DNA of 64,000 nucleotides, taken from the NCBI GenBank assembly GCA_026018925.1, contig JAKSZU010000005.1, forward strand, positions 84,433,398 to 84,497,397. The letters are read 5' to 3'. Position numbers and translations under genes: made by a program. The notes under the pieces were generated by a model. It made no database searches. It worked only from the letters and a program-made list of their open reading frames with translations, and was not told where the DNA came from. This DNA comes from Tupaia tana. Taxonomy: Eukaryota; Chordata; Mammalia; Scandentia; Tupaiidae. Numbering within the stretch: the stretch's first letter is position 1; each line of letters starts with the position of its first letter. Below are positions 11,525-54,830 of this stretch, piece by piece.

Positions 11525-11653
11525 AATTCCCAGAAAGATATAAGAGAGAAAGAGAGAGAGGGAAAGTGAGAAAGCAAGCTACCAGGTCAAGGATGTGAAC
11601 TGCAGCTGGCCATGTGAGTCCAACAGTAACCACCATGCCACCTGCCAGCCCCT
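11525..11653 (-). mobile_element. SINE-B copy
   Basis: Reads gagagaaagagagagaggga, aagcaagctaccaggtcaag and gccatgtgagtccaacagta, with far end ccacctgccagcccc. Confidence 0.82.
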
Positions 11654-20103: not shown

Positions 20104-20395
20104 GGCCAGAGAAGGCACAGTGGTTAAGGTGCCAGACTCCCACATGGCTGACGGAGGTTTAAGTCACAGTCCGAATATCTTGAAACTCATGTTGGTCATG
20201 TATGTGTGCATGTATGAGTGCCCAATATCCTGAGAGAATAGTGGAGAAGAAGAGATTGTGGCATGGCCATCTCCCCTGGGGAGTGGTTTCTTGTTTCCTG
20301 TCTCTGTTTCTCTGTGTCTCTCTGGCAAGCATATGAAACCTGTAGCAAAAATCCCTCTCAAAAAAAAAAAAAAATTTGACACTAAATAAAGTCTT
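20104..20395 (+). mobile_element. SINE-A copy
   Basis: Starts ggccagagaaggcacagtgg and ends gaaacctgtagcaaaaatcc plus an A run. The flanks accctaaat and acactaaat (after the tail) are a probable imperfect target duplication. It lies about 70 bases before the satellite array. Confidence 0.88.
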
Positions 20396-20466
20396 AAAGA
20401 AGGTGAAATTTTGTTAAATGAGACAATATAAGCTAAGCCGCTTAATTAGATGATTGGATGTCCCAG

Positions 20467-23400
20467 TTTTCAGGGATGTGTGCGGTGGTCTCAGGTGGTG
20501 CTCAGACTGTCACAGTGGGGTGCATGGTGGCTAAACATGGGGTGTGCTTTAGATCCAGTGAATGGTGCTGTGGGTGTCAGTGATATTTTCTGTGGGTTTC
20601 AGTGAGCTTTGAGACTTAGTGAGGTGTGCTATGGGTCTCAGGATTGTGTGGTGAGTTTCAGGGATGTGTTTGGTGGTCTCAAGGAGGTGTAATGCCTGTT
20701 GTATTGGGGTGTGCAGTGACTTAAAGTGGAGTGTGCTTTGGGTGCAGTGTATGGTACTGTGGGAGTCACTGACGTTTGCTGTGGTTCTCTGTAAGCTTTG
20801 AGACATAGTGGGGTGTGTCGTGTGTCTCAAGATCATGTGGTGGTTTTCAGGGACTTGTGCAATGGTGTAAATGATGTGTACTTTCTGTCACAGTGAGGTG
20901 TGCCGTGGCTTAACGTGTGGTGTGTTTTGGGTCCAGTGAATGGTACTGTGGGTGTCAATGAGGTTTGCTCAGGGTCTCAGTGAGCTTTGAGACTCATTGG
21001 GGTGTGCTATGTGTCTCAGGTCTGTGCGGTGGATTTCAGTCATGTGTTCAGTGGTCTTAATGAGGCCTGCTGCCTGTCGCAGTAGGGATTGTGGTGGCTT
21101 AAAGTGGGGTGTATTTTGGGTCCAGTGAATGGTACTGTGGATCTCAGTGAGGTTTGTTTTGGGTCTCTGTAACATTTGAGACTTAGTTGGGTGTGTTGTT
21201 GGTCTCAAGTTTGTGCGGTGGTTTTCAGGGATTTGTGTGGTGGTCTCAATGAAGTGTTTTTTTTTTTTTTTTCTGTCACAGTGGGTTGTGTTGTGGATTA
21301 AACCAGGGTTTGCTTTGGGTCCAGTGAATGGTACTTTAGGTAATGTGTTCGGTGGTCTCAATGAGCTGTGTTGCCTGTCACAGTAGGGTGTGTGGTGGTT
21401 TAAAGTGGTCCGTGCTTTGGTCCAGTGATTTTTATTGTGGGTGTCAGTGAGATTTGCTGTGGGTCTCAGTGAGGATTGAGATTTAGTATGGTGTGCTGTG
21501 GTGCTCAGGTTGGTGCAATGGGTTTCAGGGATGTGTGTGGTGGTCTAAATGAGGTGTGCTGCTTATCGCAGTGGGGTATGTTTTGGCTTAAAGTGTGGTG
21601 TGCTTTGGGTCCAGTGAATGCTACTGTGGTTCTCACTGAGGATTGCTGTGGGTCTCAGTGAGTTTTGAGACTTAGTGGTGTGTGCTGCTTGTCTCAGGAT
21701 TGTGCATATGGTATCAGGAATATGTGTGGTGGTCACAATGAGGTGTGCTTTCTGTCACAGTGGGGTGAGTTAGCTTAAATTCAAGTGTGCTTTGGGTCCA
21801 GGTAATGGTTCTGGGATATGAGTGAGGTTTTTTTGTGTGACTCAGTGATGTTTGAGATATAGTGGGGTGTGCTGTGGGTCTCAGGATTGTGTGGTGCGTT
21901 TCATGGATGTGTGTGGTGGTGAGGTGTGCTGCCTGTTGCAATGAGCGTGAGGTTGCTTAAAGTGGGGTGTGCTTTGGGACCAGTTAATGTTACTGTGGGT
22001 GTCAGTGAGGATTGCTGTGGGTCTCTGTGAGGTTTAGGTCTGTGTGGAATTTGCTGTGGGTCTCATATTTGTGTGGTAGGTTTCTGGGATGTGTGCAGTT
22101 GTCTCAATGAGTTGTGCTGCTGGTCACAATGGGGTGTGCTGTGCCCTCAGTGGAGATGATTTGGGTCCATTAAATGGTACTGTGCGTGTCAGTGAGGTTT
22201 ACTCTGGGTCTCAGTGAAGTTTCAGTCTGAGTACGGTGTGCTGTGGTTCACAGTTTTTTCAGAAGGTTTCAGGGATGTGTGCAGTGGTCTTAATGAGGTG
22301 TGTTGCTGGTCACAATGGGGTGTGCCATGGCTTCAATTGGGTTGTTCTTTGAGTACAGTGAATGTTACTCTGTTTCTTAATGTGATTTGCTGTGGGTCTC
22401 AGTGAGGTTTTGGTCTGAGTGGTGTGTGCAGTGAGTTGCTGATTTGTGCAGTGGGTTTTAGGGTTATGTGTGGTGGTCTCAATGAGGTGTGCTGCTGATT
22501 GCAGTGGAGTATGCTGTGGCTTATAGTTGGGTGTGCTGTATGTCCTGTGAATGGTACTGTGTGTCACAATGAGGGTTGTTGGGGGTCTCAGTAATGTTTG
22601 GATCTGACTGGTATTTGCTCTTGGTTGCAGTTTTGTGTGGTATATTTCAGAGATGTGTGCATTGGTCTCAATGAGGTGTGCTGCTGTTCTCGGTGAAGTG
22701 TGCTGTGGCTTAAAGTGTGGTGTGCATTGTGTCCAGTAAATGGTACTGTCAGTCTCTGTGAGGTTTTCTGTGAGTTTCAGTAAGTTTTAGGTTCATGAGG
22801 GATGTACAGTGGGTCCCAGATTTGTGTGGTGAGTTTCAAGGATGTATGTGGTGGTCTCCATGAGGAGTGTGGCTGGTCGCAGTGAAGTGTGCCTTCACTT
22901 AAAGTTGAGTGTGCTTTGTGTCCAATGAATGGTGCTGTGAGTTTCAATGAGGTTTACTGTGGTTGTCAGTGAGGTTTGGGTCTGAGTTAGGTTTCCGTGG
23001 GGCTCATATTTCTGCAGTAGGTTTCAGGGATGTGTACGGTGGTCTCTAGGAGGTGTTTCACTGGTCGCAATGGGGTGTGCCATGTCTTAAAGTGGGGTGT
23101 GCTTTGGATTCAGTGAATGGTGCTTTGGATCTCAGTGAGGTTTACTTTGGATCTCAGTGTTGTTTGTGTCTGAATGGAACGTGCTGTAGGTCTCAGGTTT
23201 GTGCAGTTGGTTTCAGGAACATGTGCATTGGTTTCAATGAGCTGTGCTGCTGGGTCAGTGAGGTTTGGGTCTGAGTGGGGTGTGCTGTGGGTAGCAGTTT
23301 GTGGGTAGGTGTCATGGATATGTGTGGTGGTGTTAATGACAAGTGATGCTGGTCACAGTGGGGTGTGCTTTGGGTCCAGTGCATGTTACTGTGGGTCTCA

Positions 23401-24302
23401 GTGAAGTGTGCTTTGTGTCTCAATGAAGTTTGTGTCATTTGGTCTGTGCTGTGGTTCTCAGGTCTGTGCAATCTGTATCATGGATGTGTGCAGTGATCTC
23501 AATGAGGTGTGTTGCTTGTTGCAGTTGGATGTAACGTGGCTTAAAGTGGGGTGTGCTTTCGTCCCAGTGAATGGTGGAGTGGGTGTCAGTGAGGTTTGCT
23601 GTTGGACTTGGTGATGTTTGGGTCTCAGTGAGGAGTGCTGTGTGTGGCAGTTTGTGCAGTAGTTTTCAGGAATGTGTGTGGTGGGCTCAATGAGTTGTGT
23701 TGCAGGTCACAGTGGACTGTGCTGTGGCTTAATGTAGAGTGTGTTTGGGTCTGGTGAATGGTACTTTGGGTTTCTGTGAGGTTCACTGTGCGTTTCAGGG
23801 AGATTTGCTGTGTTTCTCAAGTTTGCGTGGCTGTTTTCAGGGATATGTGCTGTGGTCTCAATGAGGTGTACTACTTGTCACAGTGGGGTGTGCCTTTGCT
23901 TAAATTGGGGTAAGCATTGCGTCCAGTGAATTGTACTGTGTGTCTCAGTGAGGTTTGTTATAGGTCTCAGTGTGGTTTGAATCTGAGTGGGGTGTGCTTT
24001 CAATCGCAGATTTGTGTGGTGTTTTTCAGGGATGTGTGCGGTTTTCTCAATTTTGTGTCCTGCCGGTCACAGTGGGGTGTGCCATGGCATAAAGCGGGGT
24101 GTGCTTTGGGTCCAGTGAATGGTGCTGTGGATCTCAGTGAGGGTTCCTGTGGTTCTCGATTAGGTTTGGGTCTGAGTGGTATGTGATGCTGGTCTCAGGT
24201 TTGTGCAACTGGTTTCAGGGATGTGTGTGGTGGTCTCAATGAGGTGTGCTCCTGGTTGCAGTGGCATGTGCTGTAGCTTAAAATGGGGTGTGCATTGCTT
24301 AC
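20467..24302 (+). repeat. Satellite array of 189 bp units, forward block (about 20 units)
   Basis: Tandem array with a marker (tttcagggatgtgtg) recurring at about 20468, 20656, 20845, 21034, 21223, 21523, 21712, 21899, 22081, 22267, 22456, 22645, 22834, 23022, 23211, 23476, 23662, 23835, 24024 and 24213. The spacing is 188-189 except where units are shortened (near 21.34, 23.3 and 23.8 kb). Each unit is nine related subrepeats of 17-23 bases whose shared core is like tctcagtgaggtgtgctgtg. The strand is strongly G+T-rich. The unit length is a multiple of 3, so the same 63-residue peptide pattern recurs in ORFs without being a gene. Confidence 0.96.
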
Positions 24303-25562
24303 AGTGAGCAACAGCACACCTCATTGAGATCACCACACACATCCGTGAAATCCACCGCACAAATTTGCGACCCACAGCACACCCCCCTCAGACCCAAACC
24401 TCATTGAGATCCACAGCAAACCTCACTGACACCCACAGTAAATTTCACTGGAACCAATGCACAATCCTCATTGAGACCCACAGGAAATCTCACTGACACC
24501 CACAGTGCCATTCACACAACTCAAAGCTCACCACAGTTTTAGTCACAGCACAGCCCACTGAGACCAGCAACACACCTAATTGAGAGCACTGCACACATCC
24601 CTGAAATCTACCACAAAACCTCCCACCCACATCACACCCCACTCAGACCTAAACTTCACTGAGACACACAGACAACCTCACTGAGACCCACAGTACCATT
24701 CACTGGACCCAAACTACCACACTTTAAGCCATGGCACACTCCACTGCAACTAGTAAGACACCTAACTGCACACATGACTAAAACCCATCACACAAAACTA
24801 TGACCCAGAACACAACCCACGTAGACCCAAACCTCACTGAGACCCACAGCAAACTTCACTGAGACCCACAAAACCATTCACGGTGACCCAAAGCACACCC
24901 CATTTTAAGCCATGAGACACTCCACTGTTCCCAGCATCACACCTCATTGAGACCACTGCACACATCCCTGAAACCCACTGCAGAATTCTGTGACCCACAG
25001 CACACCCCACTCAGACCCAAATCTCCCTGAGACCCACAGCAAACCTCAATGAGACCCATAGTACCATTTACTGGACCCAAAGCACACCCCAATTTAAGAA
25101 AAGGCACACCCCATTGCGACCAGTAGCACACCTTATTGAGACTGCCTCACTCATCCCTAAAACCCACTGAACAAATCTGTGACCTACAGCAAACAGCACT
25201 CAGACCCAAACCTCACTGAGACCCACAGCACCATTCACTGGAACCAAAGCACATCCCACTTTAAGTCACAGAACACCCCACTGTGACCAGAAACACACCT
25301 CATTGAGACCACCGCACACATCCCTGAAACCCACCACACAACTCTGTGACCAACAACACACCCCACTCAGACCCAAACCTCACTGACACCCACAGCAAAC
25401 CCCACTGAGACCCACAGTACCACTCACTAAACCCAATGCACATCCCACTTTAAGGCACAATATTCCATGCTGCGACCAGCAGCACACCTCATTGAGACCA
25501 CAGCACACATCCCTGAAAGCCACCACACAATACTGTGACCTACAGCACACCCCACTCAAACC
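24303..25562 (-). repeat. Satellite array of 189 bp units, inverted block (about 6-7 units)
   Basis: Same unit as the forward block but reverse complemented, now C+A-rich on the plus strand. The complementary marker (acatccctgaaacccac) recurs with gaaa ending near 24350, 24606, 24783, 24973, 25162, 25329 and 25518. Spacing is mostly 189, with one longer and two shorter intervals. It ends at a SINE at 25563. Confidence 0.95.
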
Positions 25563-25620
25563 CCTGGGAGATAACCACTTCTCAATTCCTTTTCCTCCAT
25601 TCTCTTCATGGATACTGGGT

Positions 25621-25654
<34 letters not shown>

Positions 25655-25763
25655 ACAAACACACACACCCAGTGTGATGTTCAAGCCACTGGGTCCAGGA
25701 CTTGAACCACAGTCAGTCATGTGGGAATTAAGCATCTTAACCAGTATACCACCTGCTGGCCCC
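25563..25763 (-). mobile_element. SINE-A copy lacking its tail half, with internal (CA)n
   Basis: Reads cccctgggagataaccactt directly next to satellite, then a CA microsatellite (about 25620-25670) replacing the acgcacacgc part. It ends gccactgggtccaggacttg and cacctgctggcccc. The CT-rich stretch and A-tail side of the element are absent, so the satellite joins it in mid-body. Confidence 0.9.
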
Positions 25764-50876: not shown

Positions 50877-51040
50877 GAGGGCAAGCAGATGGCATGGTGG
50901 TTAAGGTGCTCGACTCCCACATGGCTGATGATAGCTCAAGTCCTAGACCTGGCAGCTTGCTTTCTCACTCCTTCTTTTTCTCTCTCTCTATGCCTCTCTC
51001 TGGTCAAGTTGAATAATAATAAGAATCAAGTAAAATAAAG
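50877..51040 (+). mobile_element. SINE-B copy (first of tandem pair)
   Basis: Starts ggagggcaagcagatggcat; CT-rich stretch; ends ctctctggtcaagttgaata with an A/T-rich tail running into the next copy. Confidence 0.88.
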
Positions 51041-51215
51041 GAGCCGGCAGGTGGTGTGGTGGTTAAGGGTGCTGGACTCCCACATGGATGATCATGGTTT
51101 GAATCCCAGACCTGGTGACTTACTTTCTCACTTTTCTTCTCTCTCTCTTTCTGTTCCTCACTGGTCAAATTAAAATAAATAAATAAAATTAAATAAAATA
51201 ATTCTTTAAACAAAG
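51041..51215 (+). mobile_element. SINE-B copy (second of tandem pair)
   Basis: Starts ggagccggcaggtggtgtgg; ends cactggtcaaattaaaataa with an (AATA)n-like tail. Same orientation as its neighbour and abutting it. Confidence 0.9.
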
Positions 51216-52970: not shown

Positions 52971-53460
52971 CAAAAGGCAGGGATTCAGAAGATGATTACT
53001 CATAGCTCCCGAGAACTAGTGATTTCAGGGCAAAAAGAGAAATGAAGATTTCCTACTGATAATTCAGCCTCCAGCCCACAGACTTGAGTGCAGTAGAGGC
53101 AAAAGGCAGGCCTTCAGAAGACAATTCCTCATGGCTCCTGAGAACTAGTGATTTCAGGGGAAAAGAGAAATGAAGATTTCCTACTGATAATTCAGTCTCT
53201 TGCCCACAAACTTGAGTGGTAGGGAGCTCTTCTAGCCTTCTCTCTGTCTTTGTCTCTGTGTCTCTGTCTTTGTCTGCTTCTGTCTTCTCATTTTTTCTTA
53301 ATTTTTCCCTCTTAAAGTTTTTTTAAGGTAAAGTATTCTCTTGCTTTCAGCTTCACCTTTGTCTTGTTAAAAAATCCCTCTTCTCCCTCCCACCCAGGCA
53401 GGAGAGGCAAAAAGCAGGCTTTCAGAAGATGATTCCTCATGGCCCTGAGAACTAGTGAGC
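52971..53460 (+). repeat. Promoter-like 129 bp monomers in the HAL1-like 5'UTR
   Basis: Unit 1 starts at 52971 (caaaaggcagggattcagaa) and unit 2 at 53100, giving a 129-base period. Both include gagaactagtgatttcaggg, gaaatgaagatttcctactg and ataattcag. A third, partial unit starts at 53408 (caaaaagcaggctttcagaa) after about 180 bases of pyrimidine-rich sequence. Tandem 5' monomers are known as promoters in rodent L1; a promoter role here is inference. Confidence 0.85.
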
Positions 53461-53879: not shown

Positions 53880-54830
53880 AAAGAATAACTCCTCTTCATC
53901 CGCAGACAGTTCAATGGAAATTATGGAAATGTCTGATAAAAAATGTAGAATATTCATAATGGCAAAACTAACCGAGATGGAAGAGAAGAGAGACAATGAA
54001 CTGGAAAAGAGTAAGAAGAAAGGGGCTGACAAGTTCCAGGAGGTAAGGGAATTCTTGCAAGATCTAAAAGAGGAATTACACACTTTAAAAAAAGAATCAA
54101 ATGGATCTGTTAGAGATGAAGGCTATAATACAGAATGTCAAAATCTCCCTTGAAAATACAAAAGGCTGATTAGATCATACAGAAAATAGAATCTCAGATG
54201 TAAAAGAGAAAATTACTGGCCTAGAAAAATCCATCACAAAGACTGAGAAAATGGCCCCAAAAATGAGAATAATATATGAGAAATACTAGATACCATCAAA
54301 TATCCAAACATCCAGATAATTGTTATCCCAGAAGGCAAAAAGTCTCATAAGGGCATTGGTAATCTATTCCATGAAATCCTGCAAGAAAACTTTCCAAACC
54401 TAGAGAGGCACTCAAAGTTCTAGTCTAAAGAAATACAAAGGACCCCAATTAGAATCAAACCAAGAAGATCTTCTCCAAGACACATTATAGCTATATTGAC
54501 CAAAACCACAAAGACAAGATAGTAAGATTGTCAAGAGAAAAACATCAAGTTACCTACAAAGGATATCCCGTCAGGATAACAGCAGACCTCTCATCAGAAA
54601 CAATGAGAGCGAGGAAAGAATGGAAAAAATATTTTCAAAGTGTTACAGGAAAAGCAATTTCAACCAAGAATACTGTATCCAGCAAGATTATCCTTCATGT
54701 GAGAAGAAAAGACAAGAACACTCTCAGAAAAACAAAACCTGAAAGAATTTACCAGCACCAGGTCAGATCTCCAAGAAGTTCTCAAGGGAGTGCTATATCA
54801 GGAAAATTAAATACAGACACACAAAAATAA
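53880..54830 (+). pseudogene. Degenerate L1/HAL1 ORF1 (RNA-binding protein remnant)
   Basis: L1 ORF1 proteins are coiled-coil trimeric RNA-binding chaperones. Here the first readable part (from about 53,914) is rich in Glu/Lys and has heptad-like spacing (MEEKRDNELEKSKKK). A second part encodes an N-terminal-to-CTD linker and the conserved CTD core (VTYKGYPVRITADLSSET). The two parts are in different frames with stops between them, for example near 54,150 and 54,420. No intact product is possible. Confidence 0.8.

What the first reader, a model, noticed from the sequence alone, without database searches (positions are those of the whole stretch)
20467..25562. A 5.1 kb satellite with a 189 bp higher-order unit made of nine 21 bp subrepeats
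Seen directly: a marker recurs every 188-189 bases about 20 times forward, and its complement about 7 times in reverse. Each unit splits into nine related pieces of 21, 22, 21, 23, 21, 22, 17, 22 and 20 bases that share a core like tctcagtgaggtgtgctgtg. This is two-level organisation: a 21-mer amplified to 9 copies, diverged, then amplified again as a 189-mer. I do not recognise the unit as any known satellite. The block is G+T-rich on one strand for 3.8 kb, so it could favour unusual structure or R-loops (inference).
Basis: partly seen in the sequence, partly recalled or inferred. Interest (0 to 1): 0.85.

Follow-up and report, generated by a model that had tools for sequence, protein, structure and literature searches.

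The report
Scattered fossil satellite of nested repeats
A 5 kb block of 189-base repeats, each built from nine copies of a 22-base word, turns out to be one of at least 35 scattered remnants of a repeat that spread through a mammal-like genome and then decayed mostly copy by copy, which is unusual because tandem repeats normally keep their copies alike.

Summary
The array fills 20466-25563: about 20 forward units, an inversion at 24307/24308, then about 6.6 inverted units. The unit is 189 bp and splits into nine related pieces (21,22,22,22,21,22,17,22,20), so the base word is 22 bp rather than 21. The host assembly (2.95 Gb) holds at least 35 such arrays on 18 contigs. A whole-assembly pattern scan (369 hits, reversed control 0) implies very roughly 1,500 units (~280 kb) and no large homogeneous parent array. 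Over 17 loci (420 units), units of the same array are scarcely more alike (75.3%) than units of different arrays (74.7%), and their tree is about as star-like as that of dispersed SINE copies. Edges fall at scattered unit phases in unrelated flanks, without target-site duplications or consistent poly(A). Best reading: a 189-mer amplified rapidly, scattered as tandem fragments (perhaps via circles), then largely froze, probably methylated and inert. Two of the longest arrays contain a domain that kept turning over. Unexplained: an excess of G-to-T changes on the G-rich strand that differs between arrays. Known kind (dispersed satellite); Dfam/Repbase could not be searched, so the name remains open.

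The parts
20466..24307 (+). Forward arm: about 20 head-to-tail 189-bp units, G+T-rich on this strand
24308..25563 (-). Inverted arm: about 6.6 units of the same 189-mer; not separable as a population from the forward arm
24300..24315 (.). Inversion junction inside the array (different unit phases meet)
   Evidence: phases read from the sequence
22456..22644 (+). One complete 189-bp unit as an example (unit F13)
21223..21334 (+). Short unit (112 bp, internal deletion) that carries a run of 16 T at 21257-21272
23211..23475 (+). Long unit (265 bp, about 76 extra bases)
25561..25754 (-). Truncated copy of the genome's common SINE (model positions 1 to about 165) directly joined to the array; its tail is not found at the other end or at the inversion
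20110..20369 (+). Complete SINE copy about 95 bp left of the array, read as a separate insertion
   Evidence: inference

Best explanation
This is one array of a dispersed, largely fossil satellite family. A 22-bp word was multiplied to nine copies, which diverged into a 189-bp unit. That unit was amplified into near-identical tandem arrays in a burst. Pieces of random length, phase and sometimes mixed orientation were inserted at dozens of unrelated sites by a non-retrotransposition route; circular or linear tandem fragments joined by end-joining are the most likely vehicle. Since then most arrays have had little homogenising exchange, so each unit mutated mostly on its own, as interspersed repeats do. 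CpG decay suggests they were methylated in the germ line. Shown: nested structure, dispersal, shared consensus, near-star-like divergence, unrelated flanks, scattered phases, no TSD or consistent poly(A). Inferred: the burst, the circular/fragment vehicle, methylation and lack of function.
For: Nested repeat statistics. Genome hits: 195 matches with 18 of 373 candidates scored; 795 matches with 40 of 866 scored; 369 pattern hits against 0 reversed control; calibration 153 hits in about 613 units of 17 loci gives about 1,480 units, 280 kb. 420 of 432 extracted units from 17 loci: locus consensus differs from the global one at 1-9 of 189 sites; identity within loci 0.753, between 0.747. Internal-branch share of the tree 0.105, against 0.094 for 73 SINE copies. 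In this window's forward arm identity does not depend on distance (lag 1 0.742, lag 8 0.746, adjacency p 0.43; Mantel p 0.30). Between lag 1 and lag 8 identity falls by less than 0.02 in 11 of 15 arms of 12 or more units, and lags 1-5 are flat in three of four later loci. Of the rows listed for the consensus search, one unit has 94% identity and the rest 92% or less. 30 array edges lie at scattered phases without a shared flank at a common distance; no TSD and no consistent poly(A) in 17 loci. Only 16-24% of the three CpGs intact, with TG about equal to CA at two of three sites. Non-CpG transition rates 0.91-1.18 times those of SINE copies from the same sequences, and G>A not significantly heterogeneous over 19 arms (p 0.12), as expected of one age.
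Against: Freezing is not complete: nearest neighbours lie in the same locus in 27% of cases (7% expected), and the small within-locus excess is significant (0 of 200 permutations). Linked variants show subfamilies. C286a, C286b, C342 and C242 have falling lag profiles. C286a and C286b (and a short stretch of C342) carry domains of a diverged variant; the two long domains lose identity steadily with distance, 0.74 to 0.64 and 0.73 to 0.60 over 25 units, so exchange continued there. The two arms of C331 are distinct populations (0 of 1000 permutations) and differ in G>A (p 0.004). Transversions are too frequent for plain neutral decay. A parent array might sit in unassembled centromeric DNA or differ at more than 2 of the 21 scanned bases. 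Circles were never observed.
Confidence: 0.62

Rival explanations
1. The arrays are remnants of old pericentromeric or centromeric satellite layers left behind by centromere repositioning and chromosome rearrangement, rather than inserted fragments.
For: Layering of a turning-over variant next to the frozen variant in C286a and C286b, with a short stretch in C342, recalls layered centromeric satellites; three array places lie within about 133 kb on C975.
Against: At least 35 places, arrays of 1.5-19 kb in the 17 loci measured, flanks without common sequence at the edges, several places per contig, widely separated.
Confidence: 0.17
2. Arrays were seeded independently and then homogenised across chromosomes by inter-locus conversion until exchange stopped.
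For: All 17 loci share nearly one consensus.
Against: Needs efficient exchange between dozens of short interstitial arrays and a near-simultaneous stop; scattered phases and mixed orientations fit insertion better (inference).
Confidence: 0.1
3. The array is a functional GT-rich element (transcribed, R-loop forming or protein-binding).
For: Strong strand asymmetry over 3.8 kb; G>T excess on the G-rich strand could reflect strand exposure.
Against: No sequence constraint visible: units diverge about as SINEs do at transitions; no G3+ quadruplex motif in the forward arm; no Pfam match in the two open frames of the array that were tested; no Rfam match in the window at gathering score.
Confidence: 0.06
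4. A composite retroposon: a SINE head carrying a tandem-repeat body, as in SVA-like elements, moved the array.
For: In this window a SINE is truncated exactly where the array begins.
Against: Only 3 of 33 examined array edges touch a SINE, at about model positions 163, 53 and 74, while SINEs cover 21% of the window outside the array; no TSD, no consistent poly(A). A genome search for the join itself did not complete.
Confidence: 0.02

Closest known systems
D20S16 satellite of the human genome (PMC12287470; start of abstract and passages seen)
   Same: Tandem clusters on several chromosomes (20 clusters), unit built of related subunits (98 bp = 2 x 49 bp), described there as closer to minisatellite than to classical centromeric satellite
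   Different: Different subunit number and length (nine of 22 bp here); here units group only weakly by locus, and no expression data exist
ZP3AR satellite array of mouse chromosome 7 (PMC9616502; start of abstract in the listing only)
   Same: A satellite coating megabase regions that hold genes
   Different: On chromosome 7 and targeted by the zinc-finger protein ZFP819; nothing of the kind tested here
Tribolium TCAST satellites (PMC3411249, PMC5844308: starts of abstracts in listings; PMC8122249: passages)
   Same: Satellite copies partly dispersed in euchromatin
   Different: TCAST makes up 35% of that genome as pericentromeric satellite; no large source array is seen in this assembly
Mouse major satellite and bovine 31-bp-subrepeat satellites (recalled, not from a call)
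   Same: Two-level origin: short subrepeats diverged, then amplified as a longer unit
   Different: Those form huge pericentromeric arrays under concerted evolution (recalled)
SVA/LAVA composite retroposons (recalled)
   Same: SINE joined to tandem repeats in this one window
   Different: No recurrent join, TSD or consistent poly(A) over the loci examined

Membership tests
Satellite DNA (tandem family) | Head-to-tail repeats of one unit over kilobases | tested here: met
Satellite DNA (tandem family) | Several arrays of the same unit in the genome | tested here: met
   at least 35 places (hand count of the rows listed)
Satellite DNA (tandem family) | Concerted evolution: units of one array more alike than units of different arrays | tested here: inconclusive
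   0.753 against 0.747, significant but tiny; stronger in C286a, C286b, C342 and C242
Higher-order repeat satellite (alpha-satellite sense) | Multi-unit period with copies clearly more alike than neighbouring units | tested here: not met
   lags 1-8 all 0.72-0.75 in this array; TRF lists a weak 378-bp row at 20507-21237 (79% against 75%); a weak two-unit period in the C286a variant domain
Centromeric satellite | Large arrays at centromeres, CENP-A | not testable with these tools
   no large array in the assembly by the pattern scan; centromeres may be unassembled
Composite SINE-VNTR retroposon | Recurrent SINE-array join, TSD, poly(A) | tested here: not met
Described satellite in Dfam/Repbase | Sequence match to a named entry | not testable with these tools
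   no such library; no paper held all of '189 bp', 'satellite', 'subrepeat'

The most novel reading that the evidence does not exclude
Because the scattered arrays share one ancestral unit and about one age, they act as strand-marked recorders of germ-line damage. G>T (and in this locus A>T) on the G-rich strand varies about twofold between arrays and between the two arms of this one, while G>A hardly varies overall. If real, single-stranded exposure of the purine-bearing G-rich strand, through transcription or replication at the insertion site, drives purine-to-T changes.
Probability: 0.12. Interest if true: 0.65.

Novelty: new member of a known kind. Interest (0 to 1): 0.42.

Why it matters
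Satellites as a rule evolve in concert (established view, recalled). Here hundreds of tandem units at 17 loci behave nearly like independent interspersed copies, so the ancestral unit is read directly and the start and stop of homogenisation can be dated. The same unit placed in many contexts and both orientations also gives a natural test of strand-dependent mutation.

Tried and rejected
SINE-satellite composite: attractive because a SINE is cut exactly at 25561, but only 3 of 33 examined edges touch a SINE, at three different model positions, against 21% SINE cover (right edges of four extended loci not examined). TSD around array plus SINE: best score 8, p 0.38. TSD over 17 loci: mean score 5.2, below the 5.95 of mismatched pairs. 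Copying between subrepeats as source of unit variants: no (p 0.71 forward arm, 0.27 inverted arm). Quadruplexes: no G3+ motif in the forward arm, one on the minus strand of the whole array. Coding: two open frames on the minus strand of the array have no Pfam match. Mirror palindrome in C331: no. The 'private variants' filter is biased, since recurrent hits are common at this divergence, and is not used; with it the own-arm G>T difference vanished (p 0.17), G>A became strongly heterogeneous and G>A differed between the own arms (p 0.004). Comparing transitions/transversions with SINEs over all columns (0.87 against 3.1) exaggerates the contrast because of CpG sites; the fairer figures are 0.88 against 1.62, or 0.78 against 1.87 with a stricter column filter; the older half of the SINEs has 1.39, the younger 2.91. 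A last line used a wrong slice and is ignored. Unit R08 is misaligned at the junction; it and the short F06 were left out and of the Mantel test and tree, but were. 12 of 432 units under 70% identity were dropped, and the variant domains of C286a and C286b lie largely outside that set. Viral-contig scans for a satellite 21-mer and a SINE 22-mer: 0 hits. No tRNA or Rfam hits in the window. Paper searches aimed at the unit held no paper; one search was a guess at the host and also empty; some searches gave context only. The species was not identified.
Full report
What is there. The window is SINE-rich (63 matches of one SINE model; 21% of the sequence outside the array) and carries an L1 ORF1-type fragment at 54453-54827 (Pfam Transposase_22). 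Its assembly has 2.948 Gb in 1198 contigs, five of those met here over 100 Mb. At 20466-25563 lies a tandem array. Tandem Repeats Finder, autocorrelation and a wrap-around alignment agree on a 189-bp unit: about 20 forward copies to 24307, then about 6.6 inverted copies to 25563. The unit divides into nine pieces of 21,22,22,22,21,22,17,22,20 bp with mean pairwise identity 0.72 (shuffles 0.32, maximum 0.385 of 2000). The autocorrelation peak is 22, not 21.

How the units relate. In the forward arm, identity between units is about 0.74 whatever their distance (lags 1-8: 0.731-0.749; adjacency test p 0.43; Mantel p 0.30, internal branches 8.5% of tree length). TRF does list a slightly better two-unit period over 20507-21237, so weak local structure is not excluded. 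Forward and inverted arms are as alike as units within an arm (0.736 against 0.740 and 0.729; one search also finds no separation). So the inversion involves one population of units, and no neighbour-to-neighbour spreading of changes is detectable.

Elsewhere in the genome. A 601-bp query gave 195 matches with only 18 of 373 candidates scored. The 189-bp consensus gave 795 matches with 40 of 866 scored; of the rows listed, one is at 94% and the rest at 92% or less. A pattern scan of the whole assembly (21 bases, up to 2 mismatches; counts stated as whole) gave 369 hits, with 0 for the reversed control. Calibrated on 17 loci (153 hits in about 613 units; 0.08-0.67 hits per unit by locus), this suggests very roughly 1,480 units or 280 kb. 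The rows listed fall into 35 places on 18 contigs (my hand count; lists are cut, so a lower bound). The pattern scan leaves no room for a large homogeneous array of this unit in the assembly; unassembled centromeres, or a parent differing in the scanned bases, could still hold one.

Shared ancestor, little homogenisation. I fetched 16 further loci, chosen from the best-scored matches. Arrays in the 17 loci span 1.5-19 kb. Of 432 extracted units, 420 with over 70% identity were used. Locus consensuses differ from the global one at 1-9 of 189 sites, and mean identity is 0.753 within and 0.747 between loci. The internal share of the unit tree is 0.105, close to 0.094 for 73 SINE copies. From lag 1 to lag 8 identity falls by less than 0.02 in 11 of 15 arms, and by more in C286a, C286b, C342 and C242. 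Four later loci repeat the pattern: identity to global 0.835-0.856, and flat lags in C275, C264c and C331b but not in the middle arm of C420b. Against a perfect star: nearest neighbours are in the same locus in 27% of cases (7% expected), linked variants mark subfamilies, and C286a and C286b contain long domains of a diverged variant in which identity falls with distance (0.74 to 0.64 and 0.73 to 0.60 over 25 units). Subrepeats are more alike in the common consensus (0.72) than in that variant (0.59-0.66), so the common form looks closer to the ancestor.

How the arrays got there. The 30 array edges compared fall at scattered unit phases (the right ends of C286a, C286b, C342 and C111 were ends of the fetched stretch, not edges). 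Their flanks share only interspersed repeats at varying distances; the nearest case is one repeat 4 bp from the right edge of C975b and 77 bp from that of C264a, in opposite orientation, also present far from the edges elsewhere. No target-site duplication is seen in 17 loci, and A or T runs of 7 or more lie near an edge in 3 of 17. Substantial inverted arms occur in 3 of the 21 loci fetched (this one, C331, C420b; three of the later four were fetched in part), with short inverted bits in C1086 and C286a. In C331 the two arms are distinct populations (0 of 1000 permutations) and not mirror copies. A SINE touches the array here, but only 3 of 33 examined edges do so, at different SINE positions, with SINE cover of 21%. 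Random fragments of long tandem arrays inserted by end-joining fit best; circles are a likely vehicle (inference).

State and age. The three CpGs of the consensus are intact in only 16-24% of units, with TG and CA products about equal at two of three sites, which suggests germ-line methylation and long decay. At non-CpG sites, transition rates are 0.91-1.18 times those of SINE copies from the same sequences. G>A is not significantly heterogeneous over 19 arms (p 0.12), although the two C331 arms differ (p 0.004). Overall this fits one age near the SINE average.

The odd mutation spectrum. At non-CpG sites transitions/transversions are 0.88 for units and 1.62 for SINEs; G>T is 3.5 times, C>G 3.0, G>C 2.6 and A>T 2.4 times the SINE rate. 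In the forward arm G>T is 138 against 58 expected from context-matched SINE rates, and G>A 166 against 221; in the inverted arm G>T is 24 against 17.4 and G>A 47 against 66. Over 19 arms G>T ranges 0.037-0.088 (chi2/df 7.4); C>T, T>A, C>A and others also vary, less strongly. In this locus the forward arm has 109 of 1245 and the inverted arm 15 of 406 (p 0.0005; 138 of 1599 against 24 of 481, p 0.009, with all columns), and A>T 20 of 319 against 1 of 104 (p 0.03); C331 shows no G>T difference (p 0.76). In C286a, C342 and C242 (and slightly in C308 and C420) shared local variants contribute (over-dispersed columns), but not in this window's forward arm (dispersion 0.97). The SINE control is small and has subfamilies. 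I regard this as a real but unexplained asymmetry; purine damage on an exposed G-rich strand is one candidate (recalled chemistry, not tested).

Verdict. A real, two-level tandem repeat; a member of a dispersed, mostly frozen satellite family, of a known kind. Whether it has a name could not be tested: no Dfam or Repbase was available, and the paper searches aimed at the unit held no paper.

Noticed in passing
window 20466-24307 and 24308-25563; 19 arms in 17 loci: G>T on the G-rich strand is raised and differs between arrays and between the two arms here, while G>A hardly varies overall.
   Followed up: partly
C286a (L019, L020, L029, L030), C286b (L021, L031, L032), C342 (L024): Domains of a diverged variant of the 189-mer sit next to the common variant; in C286a and C286b identity falls with distance, with a weak two-unit period in C286a.
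   Followed up: partly
L039 1605-6384 (C420:181.86 Mb): Three alternating orientations in one array (-, +, -); units of the two outer arms are more alike within each arm (0.82, 0.80) than between them (0.74).
   Followed up: partly
window 21257-21272: A run of 16 T replaces unit sequence inside the array.
   Followed up: no
window, e.g. 1973-2045, 11575-11643, 50887-50959, 51049-51121: Elements that match only the first ~73 bp of the SINE model, perhaps a second class; at 50895-51201 two copies are in tandem.
   Followed up: no
window 52971-53218: Tandem duplication of a 128-bp unit, 1.9 copies.
   Followed up: no
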